In this document: piece by piece, positions 663-6,760 of the stretch
Layout: each line of letters opens with the position of its first letter
Position numbering within the stretch: the first letter of the stretch is position 1
Assembly (NCBI GenBank): GCA_943330985.1
Contig: CALQJV010000069.1
Span: 1-6,760 of the forward strand
Direction of reading: 5' to 3'
DNA: 6,760 nucleotides
DNA from: Chitinophaga pinensis
GTDB lineage: Bacteria; Bacteroidota; Bacteroidia; M30B66
Program-made: the position numbers and the translations under genes
Notes under the pieces: model-generated
What the model was told of the DNA's origin: nothing
Seen by the model: the letters and a program-made list of their open reading frames with translations, nothing else
The model's database searches: none

Positions 663-1268
663 ATGAAATCAATCTTACTTTTAATTGGTTTTTTTACTTT
701 TCTAACAAGTTTTTCTCAAGACGAAATCACTAAAAAAGATGGTTTAATCATAAAAGTAAAAGTAACAGAAATTACAGATGATTTAGTTAAATACAAGAAG
801 TTTGAAAATCTTGAGGGACCAACTTACAATCTGGAAATGAGTAAGATTTTACAAATTAAATATCAAAATGGAAGTATTGATAAATTTGAAGAAGATAAAA
901 TTGAGCCAACATTAGATATTGAATCAAATGATTCTAAGAAATTAATAGATGACCCATATTTCAAAAAACAGGTAGAAGCTATTGCAAAAGATGCAGGAGA
1001 ACAGATAATTCAGAATTGCTCAAATGCTAAAGATAATTATGGTACAGATATTTATTGGGATGGTGTTATTAAAGATCAGATATCAGGCGAAATTACTGTA
1101 CCAATTCGCACATGGTGGAATAAAAAATGGTCAACTGAAGGCAATAAAAAATGGATCCGAGGTAAAGTAATTTTAAGAAAATCTGGTGAGAAAAAATGGA
1201 TATATCAATCATCAGATGGTATGGAATTCCATGGTACAAGTTGCGCTGAGAATTTAAGACTAAAATAG
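663..1268 (+). CDS. exported protein of unknown function with N-terminal KDG..I.G/KV..I-type Bacteroidota domain
   Basis: A 201-residue protein with a clear signal peptide (residues 1-18, cleavage before Gln19), so probably periplasmic. Residues 24-75 match a motif pattern common in short exported Bacteroidota proteins: a KKDG..I-K.KV-EITDD start, then a VKYKKF-N--GP-Y core, ending KI--IKY-NGS. I recognise the pattern from this phylum but know of no assigned function. A charged linker (76-95) leads to a C-terminal region (about 97-201). That region has a predicted helix ending at Cys119 and a Trp/Lys-rich beta-like stretch with NKKW twice and EKKW once, and Cys194 near the end. The two cysteines could form a disulfide in the periplasm. 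The ATG is the only sensible start because it leads straight into the signal peptide. It lies 57 nt before the lipoprotein gene on the same strand and may be co-transcribed with it. Confidence 0.75.
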   Translation: MKSILLLIGFFTFLTSFSQDEITKKDGLIIKVKVTEITDDLVKYKKFENLEGPTYNLEMSKILQIKYQNGSIDKFEEDKIEPTLDIESNDSKKLIDDPYFKKQVEAIAKDAGEQIIQNCSNAKDNYGTDIYWDGVIKDQISGEITVPIRTWWNKKWSTEGNKKWIRGKVILRKSGEKKWIYQSSDGMEFHGTSCAENLRLK

Positions 1269-1325: not shown

Positions 1326-1658
1326 ATGAAAAAATTTTCAACATTAATTCTAGTTGCTTCCGCACTATTCTTATCAAGTTGCAACCAACGTTTGATTGAC
1401 TTCACTGTTATCAGCTCTAAAAATGTAACTCTTCGTTTAGATGAAGATGCTAAAGGCCCTCGTTCAACAGGCAAAGAAATGAAATTCTGTGGAAGACCTA
1501 TGTTAAAAGCAGCTGTTGATAAAGCTATTGAAAATGCTGGACCAGGTTATGATGCTCTTATTGATGGGGTTGTTTACCAAAGAAATGAGATTTTTCGTGC
1601 TGGGTTTGTAGTTGAAGGAACGCCAATCAAAACAAGTCAATTAAAATCTTCAAAATAA
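1326..1658 (+). CDS. small lipoprotein (110 aa), TRL-like family appearance
   Basis: The N-terminus is a type II signal peptide: Lys2-Lys3, a hydrophobic stretch, then the lipobox LSSC at 16-19, so Cys19 would be lipidated after signal peptidase II cleavage. The mature part is about 92 residues. It shows the layout I associate with small bacterial lipoproteins of the TRL-like type. First comes a beta stretch (RLIDFTVISSKNVTL, 22-36). A proline-containing helix follows (GRPMLKAAVDKAIENAG, 56-72), then a Gly/Asp turn (PGYDALIDGVVY, 73-84) and a final GF-VEGTPIK (93-102). The family is abundant but of unknown function. The protein probably sits in the outer or inner membrane facing the periplasm. 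No Shine-Dalgarno site is present; the leader is A-rich. It ends 5 nt before the large inverted repeat that should terminate its transcript. Family assignment is moderate, lipoprotein status strong. Confidence 0.8.
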   Translation: MKKFSTLILVASALFLSSCNQRLIDFTVISSKNVTLRLDEDAKGPRSTGKEMKFCGRPMLKAAVDKAIENAGPGYDALIDGVVYQRNEIFRAGFVVEGTPIKTSQLKSSK

Positions 1659-1663
1659 TTTTT

Positions 1664-1718
1664 TTGACAGAATAAAAAAAAACGCAAATTGTATTTGCGT
1701 TTTTTTTTATTCTGTCAA
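1664..1718. terminator. bidirectional intrinsic terminator: perfect 26-bp inverted repeat, 3-nt loop
   Basis: Arms 1664-1689 and 1693-1718 are perfect reverse complements around the loop TGT. The core is a 7-bp stem (CGCAAAT/ATTTGCG) flanked by nine A on one side and nine T on the other, which gives a hairpin plus U-tract on either strand. It lies between the convergent lipoprotein gene and the WD40 gene and serves both. The outer 10 bp of the stem go beyond what a terminator needs: the right arm contains the last codons and TAA stop of the WD40 gene on the minus strand, and the left arm copies the same bases on the plus strand. Confidence 0.9.
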
Positions 1719-2651
1719 TTTCCAGATTTTAATTTTATTGTCTGATCCTGCTGAAATAATATTGCTTATTCCATTAACAAAACGCACATCCATTATCGTA
1801 CCATCGTGAGCATCTGTTATGCGATGAACTACTTTCTTCTCAAGAACATCCCAAACAAGTATTGATTTGTCTTCGCCACCGCTTACCAAATATTGCCCAT
1901 CTTTAGATAAATCAATTGCAACAACTCCTCCTTTATGTTCTTTTAAAGCTCCTATATTTTTCTGCGAGCTCATTTCCCAGATTCGTATACTCGAATCAAA
2001 ACTACCTGAATAAAGGAATTTTTCATCATTTGATAAAGCCAAATCATAAATCCAATCTGAATGCCCTGCAAATTTGGCTATAAGCTCTCCAGAGCTAACA
2101 TCCCACAATTTAATTAAATTTAAGTGGTTTCCTGTTATTAGAATTTCGCCATTTTGAGCAAAAATACTGCAGTCGGTCCATACTGAATCATTCATTGCAA
2201 TTAGTTTTTTAAAACTATTTCGCTTCCATATCAATACACTTTTATCACGCCAACTCGTTGTTGCAACAATATCATTACAAATTGATATACTTTCAATAAA
2301 TGCAGAATGCGCTTTGAAAGACTTTTCAACTTTGAATTTCTTCAAATCACAGAAAAAGATTTTACCATAGCCCGCTGCATAAAATTTTGATCCTTCAGGA
2401 TTGATATTGACTTTTTTAATCGAACTCGGCAAACCTGAAATGACTTTTAATTGCTCATTTTGAACTAAATCCCAAAGTCGAATACTTTGATCTTTACTAC
2501 ATGATATCAATAATTTACCATCGTTAGAAATATCAATCCCATTAACAGGTGCAGAATGTCCAATTAAAGAAGAATGCAAGTGATACTGTGCAGATGAAAT
2601 TACAGGGGATAAAAAAAATAATATTAGAATTCGTGTATTCAAAAAAGACAT
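1707..2651 (-). CDS. exported WD40-repeat protein, seven-bladed beta-propeller
   Basis: A 314-residue protein with a signal peptide (1-21, cleavage before Gln22) and then seven WD40 repeats that fill the rest of it. The repeat-ending positions are WD60-61, FCD100-102, WK142-143, WD183-184, WE225-226, WD267-268 and WK310-311, about 41-42 residues apart. GH or AH dipeptides open repeats 1, 3, 5 and 7, and SxD or SWxD turn motifs are visible in most. Seven repeats make one complete propeller, so the gene appears whole. WD40 propellers are protein-interaction platforms with no catalysis of their own; this one would work in the periplasm or outside the cell. It is the last gene of the operon. Its ATG lies 13 nt inside the preceding gene, which suggests translational coupling, and its stop codon is inside the terminator hairpin. 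Partner proteins are unknown; the operon neighbours are the obvious candidates. Confidence 0.9.
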   Translation of the reverse strand: MSFLNTRILILFFLSPVISSAQYHLHSSLIGHSAPVNGIDISNDGKLLISCSKDQSIRLWDLVQNEQLKVISGLPSSIKKVNINPEGSKFYAAGYGKIFFCDLKKFKVEKSFKAHSAFIESISICNDIVATTSWRDKSVLIWKRNSFKKLIAMNDSVWTDCSIFAQNGEILITGNHLNLIKLWDVSSGELIAKFAGHSDWIYDLALSNDEKFLYSGSFDSSIRIWEMSSQKNIGALKEHKGGVVAIDLSKDGQYLVSGGEDKSILVWDVLEKKVVHRITDAHDGTIMDVRFVNGISNIISAGSDNKIKIWKLTE

Positions 2652-3535
2652 AGTAGTTTTCTTTTAATTTTATCGTTAAAAATTCTAGTGCGATTATAAT
2701 TAATTATGGGTACTAAATCATTTACCTGATTTATTCCACCTGTATAGAAAAGCCTAATAAGATGCACGCCCGCTGTTGCTGATGTAAAATAATTTCCGCA
2801 ATATATATTTAACGCTGTGTATGATGCAGAAGCCAAAAGTAAAGTAATATTACCCAAAGCCCGTCCTGATTTTCCAATATAAATCAATCCTGCACCTGGA
2901 AGAACTTTCGATAGTTTTCGTGCTTTGTGAATGGATTTTATTTTAGGGGTTTTTTCATTAGAATAATCCTTATCTATTATCGAAACAATACTATCCTTGA
3001 TTGGAGTCTTTGTATAATTGATTGCATAAACTGACAGTTTATTTCGGGCTTCAGAATATTTAAATAACTCATTAAGAACCAAAACATTTAATAAAATAGA
3101 GTTCTTATATTCCAATGTAGTTATAGGCAGGTTAAAATTACGCTGCAGATACGAATCAGCATCATTAAAATAATTACTTAAATACAACATTAATCCTATT
3201 TGAAAATTATATACACATTTTAATGAATCGTTATAATTATCAATATCCAATCTTTGGAAATTCTGATAAGCTTCATAATACTTACCACTATTTTTAAAAC
3301 AATATGCACGTTGCATTAAAGCATATTCTTTTATTGAAGAATCCATATTTTTAAATACACATTTTTCGTATTCAAGAGCTGCTTCTTCAAACTGATAAGC
3401 ATGGAATAAGCTATCTGCAATATAAACAGAGTAGTTTTGAGCTTTAATTGAAAAGCTCCCGAAGTGGCATATGAATGCCAACCAAAATATTAGATTTATT
3501 TTCAAGGTCTTTTTCTGTTTTGATAATTTGAACAC
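2639..3535 (-). CDS. exported TPR-like membrane protein with C-terminal PGAGxIYxG domain
   Basis: A protein of up to 298 residues. A signal peptide (hydrophobic residues 13-30, cleavage after SIKA before Gln33) precedes helical TPR-like repeats at about 36-175, with patterns such as FEEAALEYEKC and YYEAYQNFQRL. A charged linker (185-210) leads to a membrane domain with PGAGLIYIG at 213-221, a hydrophobic segment at about 226-245 and FYTGG at 263-267. It is paralogous in layout to the next gene upstream in the operon. The start is uncertain: the longest frame begins with GTG at 3535, and a TTG at 3505 (codon 11) would give a more compact signal peptide. No ATG occurs before the signal sequence. 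Either choice leaves it overlapping the upstream gene by 62 or 92 nt. Inner-membrane anchoring with periplasmic TPRs is inferred. I recognise no assigned function. Confidence 0.75.
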   Translation of the reverse strand: MFKLSKQKKTLKINLIFWLAFICHFGSFSIKAQNYSVYIADSLFHAYQFEEAALEYEKCVFKNMDSSIKEYALMQRAYCFKNSGKYYEAYQNFQRLDIDNYNDSLKCVYNFQIGLMLYLSNYFNDADSYLQRNFNLPITTLEYKNSILLNVLVLNELFKYSEARNKLSVYAINYTKTPIKDSIVSIIDKDYSNEKTPKIKSIHKARKLSKVLPGAGLIYIGKSGRALGNITLLLASASYTALNIYCGNYFTSATAGVHLIRLFYTGGINQVNDLVPIINYNRTRIFNDKIKRKLLCLF

Positions 3536-4313
3536 TTAGCGCACTCCCCCATATATTGCCAATGTAAAATGCACTGAATAAGCTAGCAAAAAAAATTGTT
3601 TGAGGATCTCGAATACCTCTATGCATATAGTTTTCGACCGTAATAACTCCCAAAACACCAACCCTCAAAAACGCGGATAATCCTTGAGCATTATTTCCTG
3701 CATATACTTTACCCAAACCAGGCACAAACGCAGAAAACAATGCCGCAATTAATGGCGATTTACGATTATTGGATTTATGAATTTGAGAATATTTGATAAG
3801 GTTATTTTGTTCGACTCTTAGAAAATCATACTTACTGTTGAATTTCTTGCTAAGTGAATCGCATTTTAAAACATCTCCAGACAATAAATAGGCGCCTGCC
3901 ATTTGGAATTCCCTGAACTGATTAACCTCCTCGTTTGATGATCGTTTTAATTTACTTAAATGAATAACGGAACTGTCTGGTTGATTCAATTTCATACAGA
4001 TGTATGAATGATAAAAATTACTTTTAAAATACCAAGGACTATTTTCTGAGACATTTCGGAAGAGTGATTTGGCTCGTTTTAAACTGTCATTTTGATAATA
4101 GACAAAGCCCATCATATAATTTAGTGAATCCAATTGACCAATATTATTTCGCGATTTGAATGTTGTTTGTTTAAAATAAACATCACTTTCATTAAATAGT
4201 TTGTTGGAGGTAAGATGAATGAGGAAGTCAAGATCGTCAATAAATGCATACTCTTTCTGAGCATACACAACATTAAAATAAACTGAGAGAAGAAAGACAA
4301 ACAGATACTTCAT
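3444..4313 (-). CDS. exported TPR-like membrane protein with C-terminal PGLGxxYxG domain
   Basis: A 289-residue protein with a signal peptide (1-18, VYA before Gln19). Helical TPR-like pairs follow at about 62-165, for example the stretch with GFVYYQNDSLKRAKSLF at 69-85. A basic linker (175-185) leads to a C-terminal membrane domain. That domain has hydrophobic segments near 186-200, 211-228 and 240-262, PGLGKVYAG at 198-206 and FYIGN at 249-253. A PGxGxxYxG motif beside a membrane helix occurs in several Bacteroidota and spirochaete envelope proteins (DUF5683-like proteins have a similar PGLGQ-Y-G); I make no firm family call. The ATG at 4313 overlaps the stop of the YidD-like gene as ATGA, a classic coupled junction. 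The last 30 residues (260-289) are encoded in DNA shared with the start and signal peptide of the next gene. The function is unknown; the context suggests a partner of the YidD-like protein. Confidence 0.8.
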   Translation of the reverse strand: MKYLFVFLLSVYFNVVYAQKEYAFIDDLDFLIHLTSNKLFNESDVYFKQTTFKSRNNIGQLDSLNYMMGFVYYQNDSLKRAKSLFRNVSENSPWYFKSNFYHSYICMKLNQPDSSVIHLSKLKRSSNEEVNQFREFQMAGAYLLSGDVLKCDSLSKKFNSKYDFLRVEQNNLIKYSQIHKSNNRKSPLIAALFSAFVPGLGKVYAGNNAQGLSAFLRVGVLGVITVENYMHRGIRDPQTIFFASLFSAFYIGNIWGSALSVQIIKTEKDLENKSNILVGIHMPLRELFN

Positions 4314-4744
4314 TTGAGTAGTTTATACATTTCTGGATTATCAATAACTTTATTCTGAAAATTGATTAACAATGGGTGAAAATCCGCACTCGCTATTTTG
4401 TTACATCTTGTAAGTCTGTCAGTTGAGAGGGCAATACCTTTTAGAAAGCCATAATGACTAATACATTGTTTACTAAAATTTGAACAACTTATTTCATATG
4501 CACATCCTGCTGAAATCTGAGGAGAAATAGCTCTTTGATAAATAAACAAAGCTCCACCAAAAAAAATACTAATTGGGTTGTATTTAATGAATACGTTTTT
4601 ATCATGAAATAAATATTTTGCCGATAATTGGACTTCTGTAGAAGCAATATTATGACCCTTCATTAGATCCAAATCTGTAATTTGTTGAGAATTAACATAA
4701 TTGATGAAATTAAAAGAAAGATAAATTATGAGTAAGGTTTTCAT
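4310..4744 (-). CDS. yidD: YidD-domain (membrane protein insertion efficiency factor-like) protein with N-terminal signal peptide
   Basis: A 144-residue protein. Residues 56-115 carry the YidD (DUF37) signature: IYQRAISP (68-75), Cys81, the SCS triad with Cys87, then HYGFLKGIAL (97-106) and RLTRCN with Cys114. E. coli YidD has the same order (YQRLISP, C, TCS, G-KG, C-HP). YidD proteins sit at the inner membrane near the YidC insertase and help membrane proteins insert. Two things differ from standard YidD, which is about 70-85 residues. First, about 55 extra residues at the N-terminus begin with a signal peptide (1-19, before Gln20). Second, the usual HPGG-DPVP tail after the last cysteine is replaced by an unrelated sequence. 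It is therefore probably a specialised paralogue, not the housekeeping copy, which normally lies near rnpA/yidC. It is the first gene of the operon and overlaps the next by 4 nt. The family call is strong; the exact role is inferred. Confidence 0.82.
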   Translation of the reverse strand: MKTLLIIYLSFNFINYVNSQQITDLDLMKGHNIASTEVQLSAKYLFHDKNVFIKYNPISIFFGGALFIYQRAISPQISAGCAYEISCSNFSKQCISHYGFLKGIALSTDRLTRCNKIASADFHPLLINFQNKVIDNPEMYKLLK

Positions 4745-5029: not shown

Positions 5030-5494
5030 ATGAGACTGCTGTTAATTATTGTAATCTTCTTTATTTCAAATTCAAATTCATTTGGGCAAGGCTATAAATT
5101 TACAGAAGACTCCCAAGTTGGGAGTTTGGGTTTGGGATTATCAGGAGTATATGGAAATAGTTCACTTAGTTTTCAATATGAAAAGGGAATTTGGCCTATC
5201 AATAAAATTGGTGTTGTAAGTCTTGCTGGATATTTGGGGTTTGGCGAAGGGAATAAAATAGGAGGAGGTTATACAATTATAGGAATCAGAAGTGCTTTCC
5301 ATTGCAATATTCCAATTGTTGACAACTTAGACCCATATGGTGGATTAATGATTGGGTTAGTATCTAGAGATTTTAGGATCGATCCTTCAATATACATAGG
5401 CTCTCGCTATTATTTTACTGAAACTTTTGCTGTTTTTGCTGAACTCGGAAGCGGAGCTTCTTTTTTAACTGGCGGTTTAGCAATACAATTTTAA
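5030..5494 (+). CDS. small outer-membrane beta-barrel-like protein
   Basis: A 154-residue protein with a signal peptide (1-19, cleavage before Gln20). The mature part is made of alternating short strands rich in Gly and aromatic residues (LGLGLSGVYGNSSLSFQYEKG, GGGYTIIGIRSAF, GSRYYFTETFAVFAELG). It ends in GGLAIQF, so the C-terminal residue is Phe. A terminal aromatic after an amphipathic last strand is the usual BAM-recognition signal of outer-membrane barrels. About eight strands could fit this length, as in small OmpA/OmpW-like barrels. No enzyme motif is seen, so a porin-like, adhesive or structural role is open. Its stop lies only 4 nt from the convergent sirtuin stop, with no hairpin terminator visible in between. 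Without structure prediction the barrel call is good but not certain. Confidence 0.75.
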   Translation: MRLLLIIVIFFISNSNSFGQGYKFTEDSQVGSLGLGLSGVYGNSSLSFQYEKGIWPINKIGVVSLAGYLGFGEGNKIGGGYTIIGIRSAFHCNIPIVDNLDPYGGLMIGLVSRDFRIDPSIYIGSRYYFTETFAVFAELGSGASFLTGGLAIQF

Positions 5495-5498
5495 TTTC

Positions 5499-6200
5499 TT
5501 ATTTTATTGATTTAATCAACTCATCCACCAATTTAGGCATTGCCTTACCAGCAGTCTCTTGAATATGTGTTAATCTGAACATCTCAGTTTGAAGATCTTC
5601 CGATGGGTCGACTAAGAATTTTCTGCTTCCGTAAGGTGCATGATTTAGCAAACCTGCGGCTGGGTAAACTTGCAATGAAGTACCAATAACAATTACGATA
5701 TCGGCCTGTTTTACAAGTTCAATGGCAGGTTCAATCATGGGAACTTGTTCGCCAAACCAAACAATATGCGGCCGAAGTTGAGTTCCTCTTTCACATAAAT
5801 CTCCCAATTTCAACTCCCATCCCGAAGTTGGATAAACCAATTCCTCAAAAACCTCGCTTCGCACTTTCAGCAGTTCACCATGCAAATGCAACACATTTTC
5901 TGAACCCGCTCTTTCGTGCAAATCATCCACATTTTGAGTAATTATCTGCGTCGGAAAATGCTTGGCCAATTTCACAAGTGCCTTATGTGCCGCATTGGGG
6001 CTTGATTCTAAAAGATGCTTTCTGCGTTGATTATAAAATTCTAAAACCAAGGTGGGATTCCGTTTCCAACCTTCAGGTGTGGCAACATCTTCAATAGCAT
6101 GCTCTTCCCACAAGCCGCCACTATCGCGAAATGTTTTTATGCCACTTTCTGAACTTATTCCGGCACCTGTAAGGACAACAATACGAGTGATTTTAGACAT
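5499..6200 (-). CDS. cobB: NAD-dependent protein deacylase, SIR2 family class III (CobB-like)
   Basis: A 233-residue cytoplasmic sirtuin. It removes acyl groups from lysine side chains using NAD, releasing nicotinamide and O-acyl-ADP-ribose. NAD-binding motifs are present: GAGISSESG (12-20), FRD (24-26), QNVDDLHERAG (89-99) and GTS (173-175). His107 in HLHGEL is the catalytic base. Tyr56 and Arg59 in FYNQRR correspond to the class III pair (Tyr92/Arg95 in E. coli CobB) that binds acidic acyl groups, so desuccinylase or demalonylase activity is predicted alongside deacetylase activity. Where CobB has its zinc-binding cysteines, this protein has only one Cys in its whole length (136, in GDLCERG), so the zinc site is absent; related Bacteroidota sirtuins appear to share this. 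The length is normal and complete. It is divergent from the malic enzyme gene and convergent with the beta-barrel gene. Confidence 0.95.
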   Translation of the reverse strand: MSKITRIVVLTGAGISSESGIKTFRDSGGLWEEHAIEDVATPEGWKRNPTLVLEFYNQRRKHLLESSPNAAHKALVKLAKHFPTQIITQNVDDLHERAGSENVLHLHGELLKVRSEVFEELVYPTSGWELKLGDLCERGTQLRPHIVWFGEQVPMIEPAIELVKQADIVIVIGTSLQVYPAAGLLNHAPYGSRKFLVDPSEDLQTEMFRLTHIQETAGKAMPKLVDELIKSIK

Positions 6201-6357: not shown

Positions 6358-6760
6358 ATGAGTATGAACGATTATAAAAAGAAACAAGCCCTTGATTACC
6401 ACGCTAATGGTCGTCCGGGTAAAATTGAAGTCATTTCAAGCAAGCCAACCTCCACTCAACGCGACCTTTCTTTGGCTTATTCGCCGGGCGTTGCTGAACC
6501 CTGTTTGGAAATTGCCAACAACCCCGAAGATGTATATAAATATACAACCAAGGGAAATTTAGTAGCCGTCATTTCGAATGGAACTGCTGTATTGGGTCTT
6601 GGAAATATTGGCCCCGAAGCATCCAAACCCGTAATGGAAGGAAAAGGTGTTTTGTTTAAAATATTTGCTGATATCGATGTTTTCGATATCGAAGTTGACG
6701 CTACCGATATCGATAAATTTGTGGAAACCGTTCAAGCCATTTCCCCCACATTTGGAGGAA
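6358..6760 (+). CDS. maeB: malic enzyme (MaeB-type), N-terminal part, continues past window
   Basis: The frame is open from ATG 6358 to the right edge, giving 134 codons. Malic enzyme oxidatively decarboxylates malate to pyruvate and CO2 with reduction of NAD(P), linking the TCA cycle to pyruvate and supplying NAD(P)H. Recognisable family stretches are [15 protein letters not shown] near the start, [12 protein letters not shown], the [16 protein letters not shown] block, [11 protein letters not shown], then [14 protein letters not shown] and [12 protein letters not shown]. These match the N-terminal malic domain of bacterial MaeB-type enzymes, which usually carry a C-terminal phosphotransacetylase-like domain; that half lies outside the window. 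A second ATG at 6364 is an alternative start two codons later. Codon use and GC (48% in one line counted) resemble the sirtuin gene and differ from the AT-rich block upstream. Confidence 0.93.

What the first reader, a model, noticed from the sequence alone, without database searches (positions are those of the whole stretch)
1707..4744. Four-gene exported operon: YidD-like protein, two TPR/PGxGxxYxG membrane proteins, WD40 propeller
Four minus-strand genes overlap at every junction (4, 62-92 and 13 nt), and every product has a signal peptide. The first carries a recognisable YidD signature, the next two share a TPR-like region plus a membrane domain with PGxGxxYxG and FYxG, and the last is a complete seven-bladed WD40 propeller. 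Known YidD assists YidC-dependent insertion. A YidD variant locked in a coupled operon with two membrane TPR proteins and an exported scaffold suggests a dedicated envelope complex, perhaps for assembling or placing a particular membrane protein. I know of no described system with this exact set. The functional link is inference from gene order.
Basis: partly seen in the sequence, partly recalled or inferred. Interest (0 to 1): 0.72.

Follow-up and report, generated by a model that had tools for sequence, protein, structure and literature searches.

The report
Exported YidD operon of Bacteroidota
Many bacteria of one large phylum carry a second copy of a membrane-assembly helper protein that looks made for the outside of the inner membrane, beside the same partner genes; this conserved gene set seems undescribed and probably handles greasy molecules in the cell envelope, though its exact job is unknown.

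Summary
The four-gene operon is real and its first three genes are a conserved unit. An exported YidD paralogue (4310-4744) and two TPR proteins with a PGxGxxYxG/FYxG membrane domain (3444-4313, 2639-3535) keep their order across Bacteroidota: YidD profile hit in 76 of 80 fetched loci, a remnant lacking the conserved cysteines in the other 4. In 198 genomes of the phylum, 25 have YidD beside gene 2; all 25 have a second YidD, against 3 of the other 173. The WD40 propeller is not core: it is limited to one clade that includes the window. YidD-TPR fusions without an internal leader suggest a periplasmic YidD domain, so a YidC helper role on the cytoplasmic face is unlikely. Best reading: an inner-membrane-anchored periplasmic module handling a hydrophobic client, usually with a LolA-fold carrier. 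Anatomy is shown; mechanism and client are inferred. Seven library searches found no description.

The parts
4310..4744 (-). Exported YidD paralogue: leader, then YidD domain with the C-x5-C pair (C81, C87) and a third Cys (C114)
3444..4313 (-). Gene 2: leader, TPR domain, C-terminal TM2-like membrane hairpin (PGLGKVYAG ... FYIGNIWGSALSV)
2639..3535 (-). Gene 3: second TPR-like + PGxGxxYxG/FYxG protein, weakly similar to gene 2; leader encoded inside the overlap with gene 2
3444..3535 (-). Out-of-frame overlap of genes 2 and 3 (92 nt, or 62 nt from the TTG), a recurrent feature of the operon
1707..2651 (-). Exported seven-repeat WD40 propeller: accessory gene seen only in the window's clade
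1664..1718 (.). Perfect 26-nt inverted repeat (3-nt loop) at the convergent 3' ends: likely bidirectional terminator
1326..1658 (+). Convergent small lipoprotein-like gene, kept beside the WD40 gene in L001-L004; possible further accessory
663..1268 (+). Exported protein of unknown family, kept in L001, L003, L004; a homologue (by eye) lies upstream of YidD in L139

Best explanation
Genes 1-3 encode a dedicated envelope module. All three are exported by Sec. Genes 2 and 3 stay in the inner membrane by their TM2-like C-terminal hairpins with TPR domains in the periplasm, and hold the YidD domain on the periplasmic face. There YidD, a family thought to contact hydrophobic segments, receives a hydrophobic or lipid-anchored client. 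In most lineages found the client passes to a LolA-fold periplasmic carrier encoded next door (often with an exported TM2 protein), much as LolCDE hands lipoproteins to LolA; in the window's clade the carrier is missing and an exported WD40 propeller has joined, either replacing it as docking partner or marking a changed client. Shown: gene content, order, overlaps, co-occurrence, fusions, predicted LolA fold, clade-wise swap. Inferred: complex formation, client handling, hand-off.
For: Conserved and coupled: YidD upstream of gene 2 in 76 of 80 loci, remnant in 4; 24 of 24 loci in a separate phylum sample, 22 of 24 with gene 3 recognised; 29 of 30 loci in the window's order, in L140 with one gene between. 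Second YidD tracks gene 2 (25 of 25 against 3 of 173, Fisher 9e-29). YidD fused to gene 2 with one leader only in L063, L065, L067 (one clade) and in the distant L096: physical link, same compartment. The C-x5-C pair is kept or lost as a pair in 96 of 96 aligned YidDs, as expected of a disulphide outside the cytoplasm. LolA-like gene directly upstream of the main operon in 68 of 81 loci, predicted LolA fold (pLDDT 95.9; PDB LolA E 9.9e-12), tied to gene 2 across whole genomes: 10 of 16 against 0 of 102, and 14 of 23 against 2 of 96.
Against: No biochemical or phenotypic data. No LolA-like gene was found in several triad genomes (G208, G210-G214, G217, G219; drafts of untold completeness) nor upstream of YidD in the acyl-CoA-dehydrogenase-linked lineage, so a LolA carrier cannot be essential to the core. 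A LolA fold does not prove lipoprotein carriage: RseB/MucB-type sensors share it, and a histidine kinase lies in 13 of the 81 loci. Some Bacteroidales lost the YidD cysteines. Topology rests on a hydrophobicity rule and fusions, not experiment. WD40 'replacement' is one event in one clade, and LolA-like absence without WD40 occurs too (L007, L021, L037).
Confidence: 0.4

Rival explanations
1. Assembly platform for one particular envelope structure (secretion, adhesion or outer-membrane machine): TPR proteins scaffold, the YidD domain helps place subunits, and LolA-like or WD40 proteins are structural or docking parts rather than carriers.
For: TPR and WD40 are docking folds; accessory genes change by lineage (LolA-like/TM2, WD40, an unassigned gene near 13 loci); patchy distribution, 25 of 198 genomes.
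Against: In the 6-kb flanks of the 80 loci and the window, the only families in more than 13 loci are the triad, LolA-like and TM2; the next (8-13 loci) are histidine kinases, an unassigned protein, PPK2 and a small beta-barrel by eye, none a known machine. Rarer families were not all identified.
Confidence: 0.22
2. Periplasmic sensor: the LolA-fold or WD40 protein senses mislocalised lipids or proteins, like RseB/MucB, and the TPR-membrane proteins relay it.
For: RseB and MucB appear among the fold matches of the LolA-like protein. A sensor histidine kinase lies in 13 of 81 loci, in a group of Bacteroidales just upstream of the LolA-like gene.
Against: No such kinase clustered in the flanks of the other 68 loci, and its group also shares PPK2, so it may be plain local synteny. 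RseB/MucB match worse than LolA (E 2e-6 to 1e-5 against 1e-11). Does not explain a YidD domain.
Confidence: 0.15
3. One reading: a specialised helper of YidC-dependent membrane-protein insertion.
For: YidD is annotated as an insertion efficiency factor and a review table lists in-vitro transport/cross-linking for E. coli YidD.
Against: Leader and fusions put the domain in the periplasm; a canonical YidD exists besides in 10 of 10 triad genomes; the window shows no yidC or rnpA beside it.
Confidence: 0.1
4. No joint function: the genes merely stay together by descent.
For: Gene order can persist in close relatives.
Against: Order persists between gene-2 proteins only 18-24% identical, in a second, paralogous operon (L002, L023), with fusions in two distant lineages; the LolA-like gene co-occurs even on other contigs.
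Confidence: 0.03

Closest known systems
YidD (PF01809, TIGR00278), encoded with rnpA and yidC in E. coli
   Same: YidD domain over the family cut-offs, with the conserved cysteines
   Different: Has a leader, stands in a TPR operon, and is a second copy beside a canonical YidD in relatives
Lol pathway (LolCDE-LolA-LolB) and the extra LolA paralogues of Bacteroidota (LolA2, LolA3)
   Same: The partner gene of most relatives has a predicted LolA fold; P. gingivalis LolA3 (9tp6) is among the matches
   Different: Under the LolA_like sequence cut-off (28 bits against 30 at best); the triad stands where no LolCDE or LolB was seen. The main texts of PMC11885536 and PMC13103446 hold the word YidD 0 times
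TM2 (PF05154) and DUF5683 membrane domains
   Same: Short PGxGxxYxG hairpin motif resembles both
   Different: Below both families' cut-offs (14.9 of 27.9 bits; 17.2 of 26.7) and joined to an exported TPR domain
Exported TPR docking proteins such as LbcA and BepA
   Same: TPR fold of gene 2 matches them weakly
   Different: Gene 2 has the extra membrane hairpin and the YidD operon context

Membership tests
YidD (PF01809) | Domain score above curated cut-off | tested here: met
   54.5 bits against 27; TIGR00278 60.9 against 40
YidD (PF01809) | Conserved cysteines and DRxxR core | tested here: met
   C81, C87, C114 and D109/R110/R113 in the window protein; C-x5-C pair kept in 95 of 96 aligned relatives
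YidD (PF01809) | Non-exported, acts at the cytoplasmic face with YidC (localisation recalled) | tested here: not met
   N-terminal hydrophobic leader in 97 of 98; fusions to the TPR part. Sequence evidence only. So filed as an exported paralogue, not an orthologue
YidD (PF01809) | Contacts nascent membrane proteins | not testable with these tools
   needs cross-linking
TM2 (PF05154) | Domain score above curated cut-off | tested here: not met
   gene 2: 14.9 bits against 27.9
DUF5683 (PF18935) | Domain score above curated cut-off | tested here: not met
   relatives' gene 3: 17.2 and 12 bits against 26.7; not listed for the window's genes at E 1
TPR | Alpha-solenoid of helix pairs | tested here: met
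   gene 2 model, TPR-type fold matches and profile matches to TPR chains; Pfam TPR scores stay under cut-off. Gene 3 was not modelled
WD40 | Repeat score above cut-off and seven repeats | tested here: met
   PF00400 148.5 bits; seven repeats read
LolA (partner gene of relatives, absent from the window) | LolA fold | tested here: met
   model of the L019 protein, pLDDT 95.9, PDB LolA E 9.9e-12
LolA (partner gene of relatives, absent from the window) | Sequence family cut-off | tested here: not met
   PF17131 28, 26.1 and 12.6 bits against 30 in three main-operon proteins, no PF17131 match in the two second-operon ones
LolA (partner gene of relatives, absent from the window) | Carries lipoproteins between LolCDE and LolB | not testable with these tools
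   needs binding and transfer assays

The most novel reading that the evidence does not exclude
A so far undescribed periplasmic trafficking route of Bacteroidota, in which a Sec-exported YidD held by a pair of TPR-membrane proteins plays the part that LolCDE plays for LolA: it collects lipid-anchored or hydrophobic clients at the outer face of the inner membrane and passes them to interchangeable carriers or docks (LolA-fold in most lineages found, WD40 in the window's clade). It would give orphan LolA-type proteins of the phylum a source.
Probability: 0.22. Interest if true: 0.85.

Novelty: new variant of a known kind. Interest (0 to 1): 0.62.

Why it matters
YidD is very widespread (found in 198 of 198 genomes sampled and 10 of 14 named controls) and its mechanism is still vague. 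An exported paralogue with constant partners moves the family into a compartment where cytoplasmic helpers of YidC cannot act, and offers a separate place to learn what the domain does. It is also a concrete candidate for missing steps in Bacteroidota lipoprotein or lipid traffic: a mutant without all five known LolA/LolB proteins of F. johnsoniae is viable (PMC11885536, passage), and P. gingivalis LolA3 binds LolB only very weakly, the authors suggesting alternative routes (PMC13103446, abstract and passages). The gene set is compact, present in cultured species (Spirosoma, Rudanella, Filimonas, Flectobacillus, Ancylomarina by record titles) and testable by deletion.

Tried and rejected
WD40 as core component: rejected, only in the window's clade. 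Plasmid-borne operon: gene 2 has no tblastn match at E 1e-5 in 72,556 plasmid records. PDB sequence search for the exported YidD found nothing, for one LolA-like protein nothing relevant, for the LolA-like profile only weak hits, two of them of LolA-type fold (E 0.008 and 0.019). Sigma-70-type promoter matches are no more than chance (24 found, 22.4 expected). The raw tally (123 of 198 at E <= 0.001) is mostly TPR noise; I cut at E < 1e-12 after seeing the list. Below that come further hits in genomes already counted, then 1.9e-9; the next six loci (L105-L110) lack YidD. G019 fell under that cut but its second YidD is followed by gene 2 and the start of gene 3; with G019 on the other side the table is 24 of 24 against 4 of 174. 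Literature: seven searches of the held library gave no paper on an exported YidD or on this operon; most subscription papers are not held. Only four papers were opened (PMC11885536, PMC13103446, PMC8082313, PMC10502375), as passages, plus the abstract of PMC13103446; the rest were seen as listings, among them the one paper that holds both YidD and LolA (PMC13066512, on Leptospira transcription), which I did not open. Yu et al. 2011 on E. coli YidD was not read; I saw it only as a citation and its content is recalled.
Full report
What is in the window. Four minus-strand genes lie at 4310-4744, 3444-4313, 2639-3535 and 1707-2651 with overlaps of 4, 92 (62 from the alternative TTG) and 13 nt. The first is a YidD by both curated models. 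Genes 2 and 3 share a PGxGxxYxG...FYxG C-terminal membrane region; direct pairwise similarity is slight (E 0.003 over 36 residues), but a profile of gene 2 picks up gene 3 in most loci. The fourth is a seven-repeat WD40 protein. All four begin with a hydrophobic leader (by eye). No whole genome is held for the window, so its own canonical YidD or other copies could not be looked up.

The triad is a conserved unit. A profile of gene 2 found 258 relatives in one-genome-per-species contigs; the best 80 were kept. In these 80 loci the YidD profile hits a gene upstream of gene 2 in 76 (77 of 81 with the window); the other four (L043, L054, L063, L067) have a remnant without the conserved cysteines, recognised by eye, in two of them fused to gene 2. 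Gene 3 follows in 79 of 80; in L006 the contig ends. In a separate even sample of 198 genomes of the phylum, 24 have a gene-2 match at E < 1e-12; all 24 have YidD upstream and 22 have gene 3 recognised downstream, L096 and L104 not. In the window's order, 27 of 87 genomes match; of the 30 loci fetched, 29 have YidD upstream of gene 2 (in L140 with one gene between), L142 being the exception. Four of these 30 (L126-L128, L130) lie in the genomes of L001 and L003-L005.

The second YidD and the triad go together. Ten of ten triad genomes have exactly two YidDs, one canonical (98-117 bits) and the exported one (40-68 bits). In the 198-genome sample every genome has a YidD, and 28 have more than one. 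Of these 28, 24 are the genomes above; G019 is a further one; G035, G094 and G105 have a short second YidD that starts directly with the domain and has unrelated neighbours. So 25 of 25 genomes with YidD beside gene 2, against 3 of 173 others, carry a second YidD (Fisher 9e-29; with G019 not reassigned, 24 of 24 against 4 of 174).

Compartment. Strong leaders occur in 97 of 98 YidDs (a hydrophobicity rule). More telling are natural fusions. In L063, L065 and L067 (one clade on the tree, which also holds the unfused L043 and L054) and in the distant L096, YidD and gene 2 form one frame with one leader and, by eye, none between the halves. YidD and the TPR part must then lie on the same side. 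In 96 aligned YidDs the two cysteines of C-x5-C are both present in 95 and both absent in one, while the third cysteine is replaced in 20 (D in 18, R in 1, N in the cysteine-less one). Not in that count: the four remnants, the fused L065 (pair kept) and L096, and L022, L039, L052 and L072, dropped by a distance rule. This fits a disulphide, though a metal site is not excluded.

Translational coupling. YidD and gene 2 overlap by exactly 4 nt in 43 of 96 unfused cases, the commonest value. Genes 2 and 3 overlap by at least 50-69 nt in 57 of 103, and in 80 of 103 the hydrophobic core of the gene-3 leader is encoded wholly inside gene 2 in another frame. In the 23 others it is not: 20 are in the divergent sample L083-L103, the rest L020 and the second copies of L002 and L023. 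Starts are mechanical, so single values may be off.

Partners that the window lacks. A gene of about 240 codons lies directly upstream of the main operon in 68 of 81 loci (two of them cut by contig ends), and in L002 and L023 upstream of a second operon. It scores just under the LolA_like cut-off (28, 26.1 and 12.6 bits of 30). Its AlphaFold2 model (47 sequences, pLDDT 95.9) matches LolA structures (best E 9.9e-12), P. gingivalis LolA3 (E 5.8e-10) and more weakly RseB/MucB. Co-occurrence holds for whole genomes at E 1e-12: in the order of G001 the LolA-like gene is in 10 of 16 gene-2 genomes and 0 of 102 others; in the order of G005 in 14 of 23 and 2 of 96 (Fisher 8e-11 and 1e-10). In G443, G465 and G485 it lies on another contig than gene 2, and in G215, G216 and G218 away from the triad, so the link is not only shared position. 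A TM2 protein with a leader is found in 63 of 81 loci, mostly just upstream on the same strand (34) or downstream convergent (26); L001-L006 and the window lack it.

The window's clade. The WD40 gene follows the triad in L001-L005, L129 and the window, and in no other of the 80 loci at E 1e-5. The genomes of L001 and L003-L006 gave no LolA-like match at E 0.001, with the caveat that these are drafts; L002 has one, in its second, divergent operon. The nearest group in the same order (G331, G335, G338, G340, G349, G356, G357, G408) carries the LolA-like gene in place in 8 of 8. On the gene-2 tree the WD40 rows form one clade with L006 and the long-branched L139 (99/97); its union with the LolA-bearing sister group is less firm (80/89). 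In L006 and L139 the sequence held ends before the WD40 position. LolA-like absence without an adjacent WD40 also occurs (L007, L021, L037), so the swap is a single suggestive case, not a rule.

How it most likely works. Established here: conserved order, coupling, fusion, second-copy YidD, predicted LolA fold of the usual partner, clade-wise swap. From family knowledge: YidD helps hydrophobic segments into the inner membrane (recalled; a review table lists in-vitro transport/cross-linking, PMC8082313 passage), TPR and WD40 domains dock proteins, and LolA folds bind acyl chains. Inferred: genes 2 and 3 form an inner-membrane platform whose TPR domains hold the YidD domain in the periplasm; the platform presents a hydrophobic or lipid-anchored client; a LolA-fold carrier or, in this clade, a WD40 protein takes the next step. 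I give this 0.4. A scaffold for a particular envelope structure is the main rival; a sensor is the next, helped by a histidine kinase found in 13 of 81 loci, in one Bacteroidales group just upstream of the LolA-like gene.

Comparison and novelty. The protein is YidD by domain and cysteines but fails the family's cellular setting; the membrane hairpins resemble TM2 and DUF5683 without passing either cut-off; the usual partner has the predicted LolA fold but is only borderline by sequence. The main texts of two papers on Bacteroidota LolA/LolB paralogues do not hold the word YidD (passages read, not the whole texts). Seven library searches found no description of the operon. I rate it a new variant of a known kind: a known domain in a new compartment with new constant partners.

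Noticed in passing
window 1664-1718: Perfect 26-nt inverted repeat with a 3-nt loop between the convergent WD40 and lipoprotein genes, likely a terminator for both strands; folds at -32 kcal/mol.
   Followed up: partly
window 663-1268 and 1326-1658: Two exported genes convergent with the operon keep their place beside WD40 in related loci (lipoprotein in L001-L004; 663 gene in L001, L003, L004). A 663-type gene (by eye) lies upstream of YidD in L139, a second arrangement.
   Followed up: partly
L002:2186-4892, L023:9146-11836: A second, divergent copy of the operon on the other strand, again LolA-like, YidD, gene 2, gene 3; the two copies form one clade (100/99) apart from the main copies. In L125 (same place as L002) an exported protein resembling the TM2 gene's product by eye precedes it; Pfam gives it no family.
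   Followed up: partly
L043, L054, L063, L064, L067: Some Bacteroidales (mostly ruminant-gut records by title) keep the operon but their YidD has lost the conserved cysteines; L065 has lost only the third.
   Followed up: partly
L001:1051-4617, L011:3091-4602 and relatives (13 loci): Sensor histidine kinase in the flank; in L011, L018, L028, L029, L040, L042, L059 and L061 it lies just upstream of the LolA-like gene, with PPK2 before it.
   Followed up: partly
L011:7647-8555 and relatives (13 loci): A gene of about 300 codons without a Pfam family, TPR-like by eye; it directly follows or overlaps gene 3 in 7 loci and is divergent beside the LolA-like gene in 3 (L023, L051, L077).
   Followed up: partly
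L017, L034, L048, L057, L060, L069, L071, L073; window 5030-5494: A small outer-membrane beta-barrel-like gene (by eye) lies near the operon in 8 loci; the window has a similar one divergent from YidD, which matches the L073 one at E 1.3e-7.
   Followed up: no
L096:660-1130, L104:2707-3195: In two distant loci a lipoprotein with a PEGA domain (36.2 and 22.7 bits against cut-off 20.8) lies directly upstream of YidD.
   Followed up: partly
L118, L119, L120: Three genomes have another kind of second YidD, about 95-116 codons, starting with the domain itself and with a response-regulator gene (by eye) nearby.
   Followed up: no
L083, L085, L087-L092, L094, L095, L097, L098, L102, L116: A divergent lineage of the triad lies downstream of an acyl-CoA dehydrogenase gene (by eye), without the LolA-like gene between; its YidD mostly lacks the third cysteine. 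One related gene-2 protein is named Ignavibacteriales.
   Followed up: partly
L046, L076, L016, L060: Record titles (Williamsia, Cloacimonadota, Flavobacterium, Cellulophaga) disagree with the tree position of gene 2 among Chitinophagales, Balneolales, Rudanella and Flectobacillus; probably misnamed or mis-binned records.
   Followed up: no
window 5499-6200, 3-491, 6358-6760: Ordinary neighbours: Sir2 deacetylase, end of an MMPL-type transporter, and the start of a malic-enzyme-like gene (recalled, not tested).
   Followed up: no
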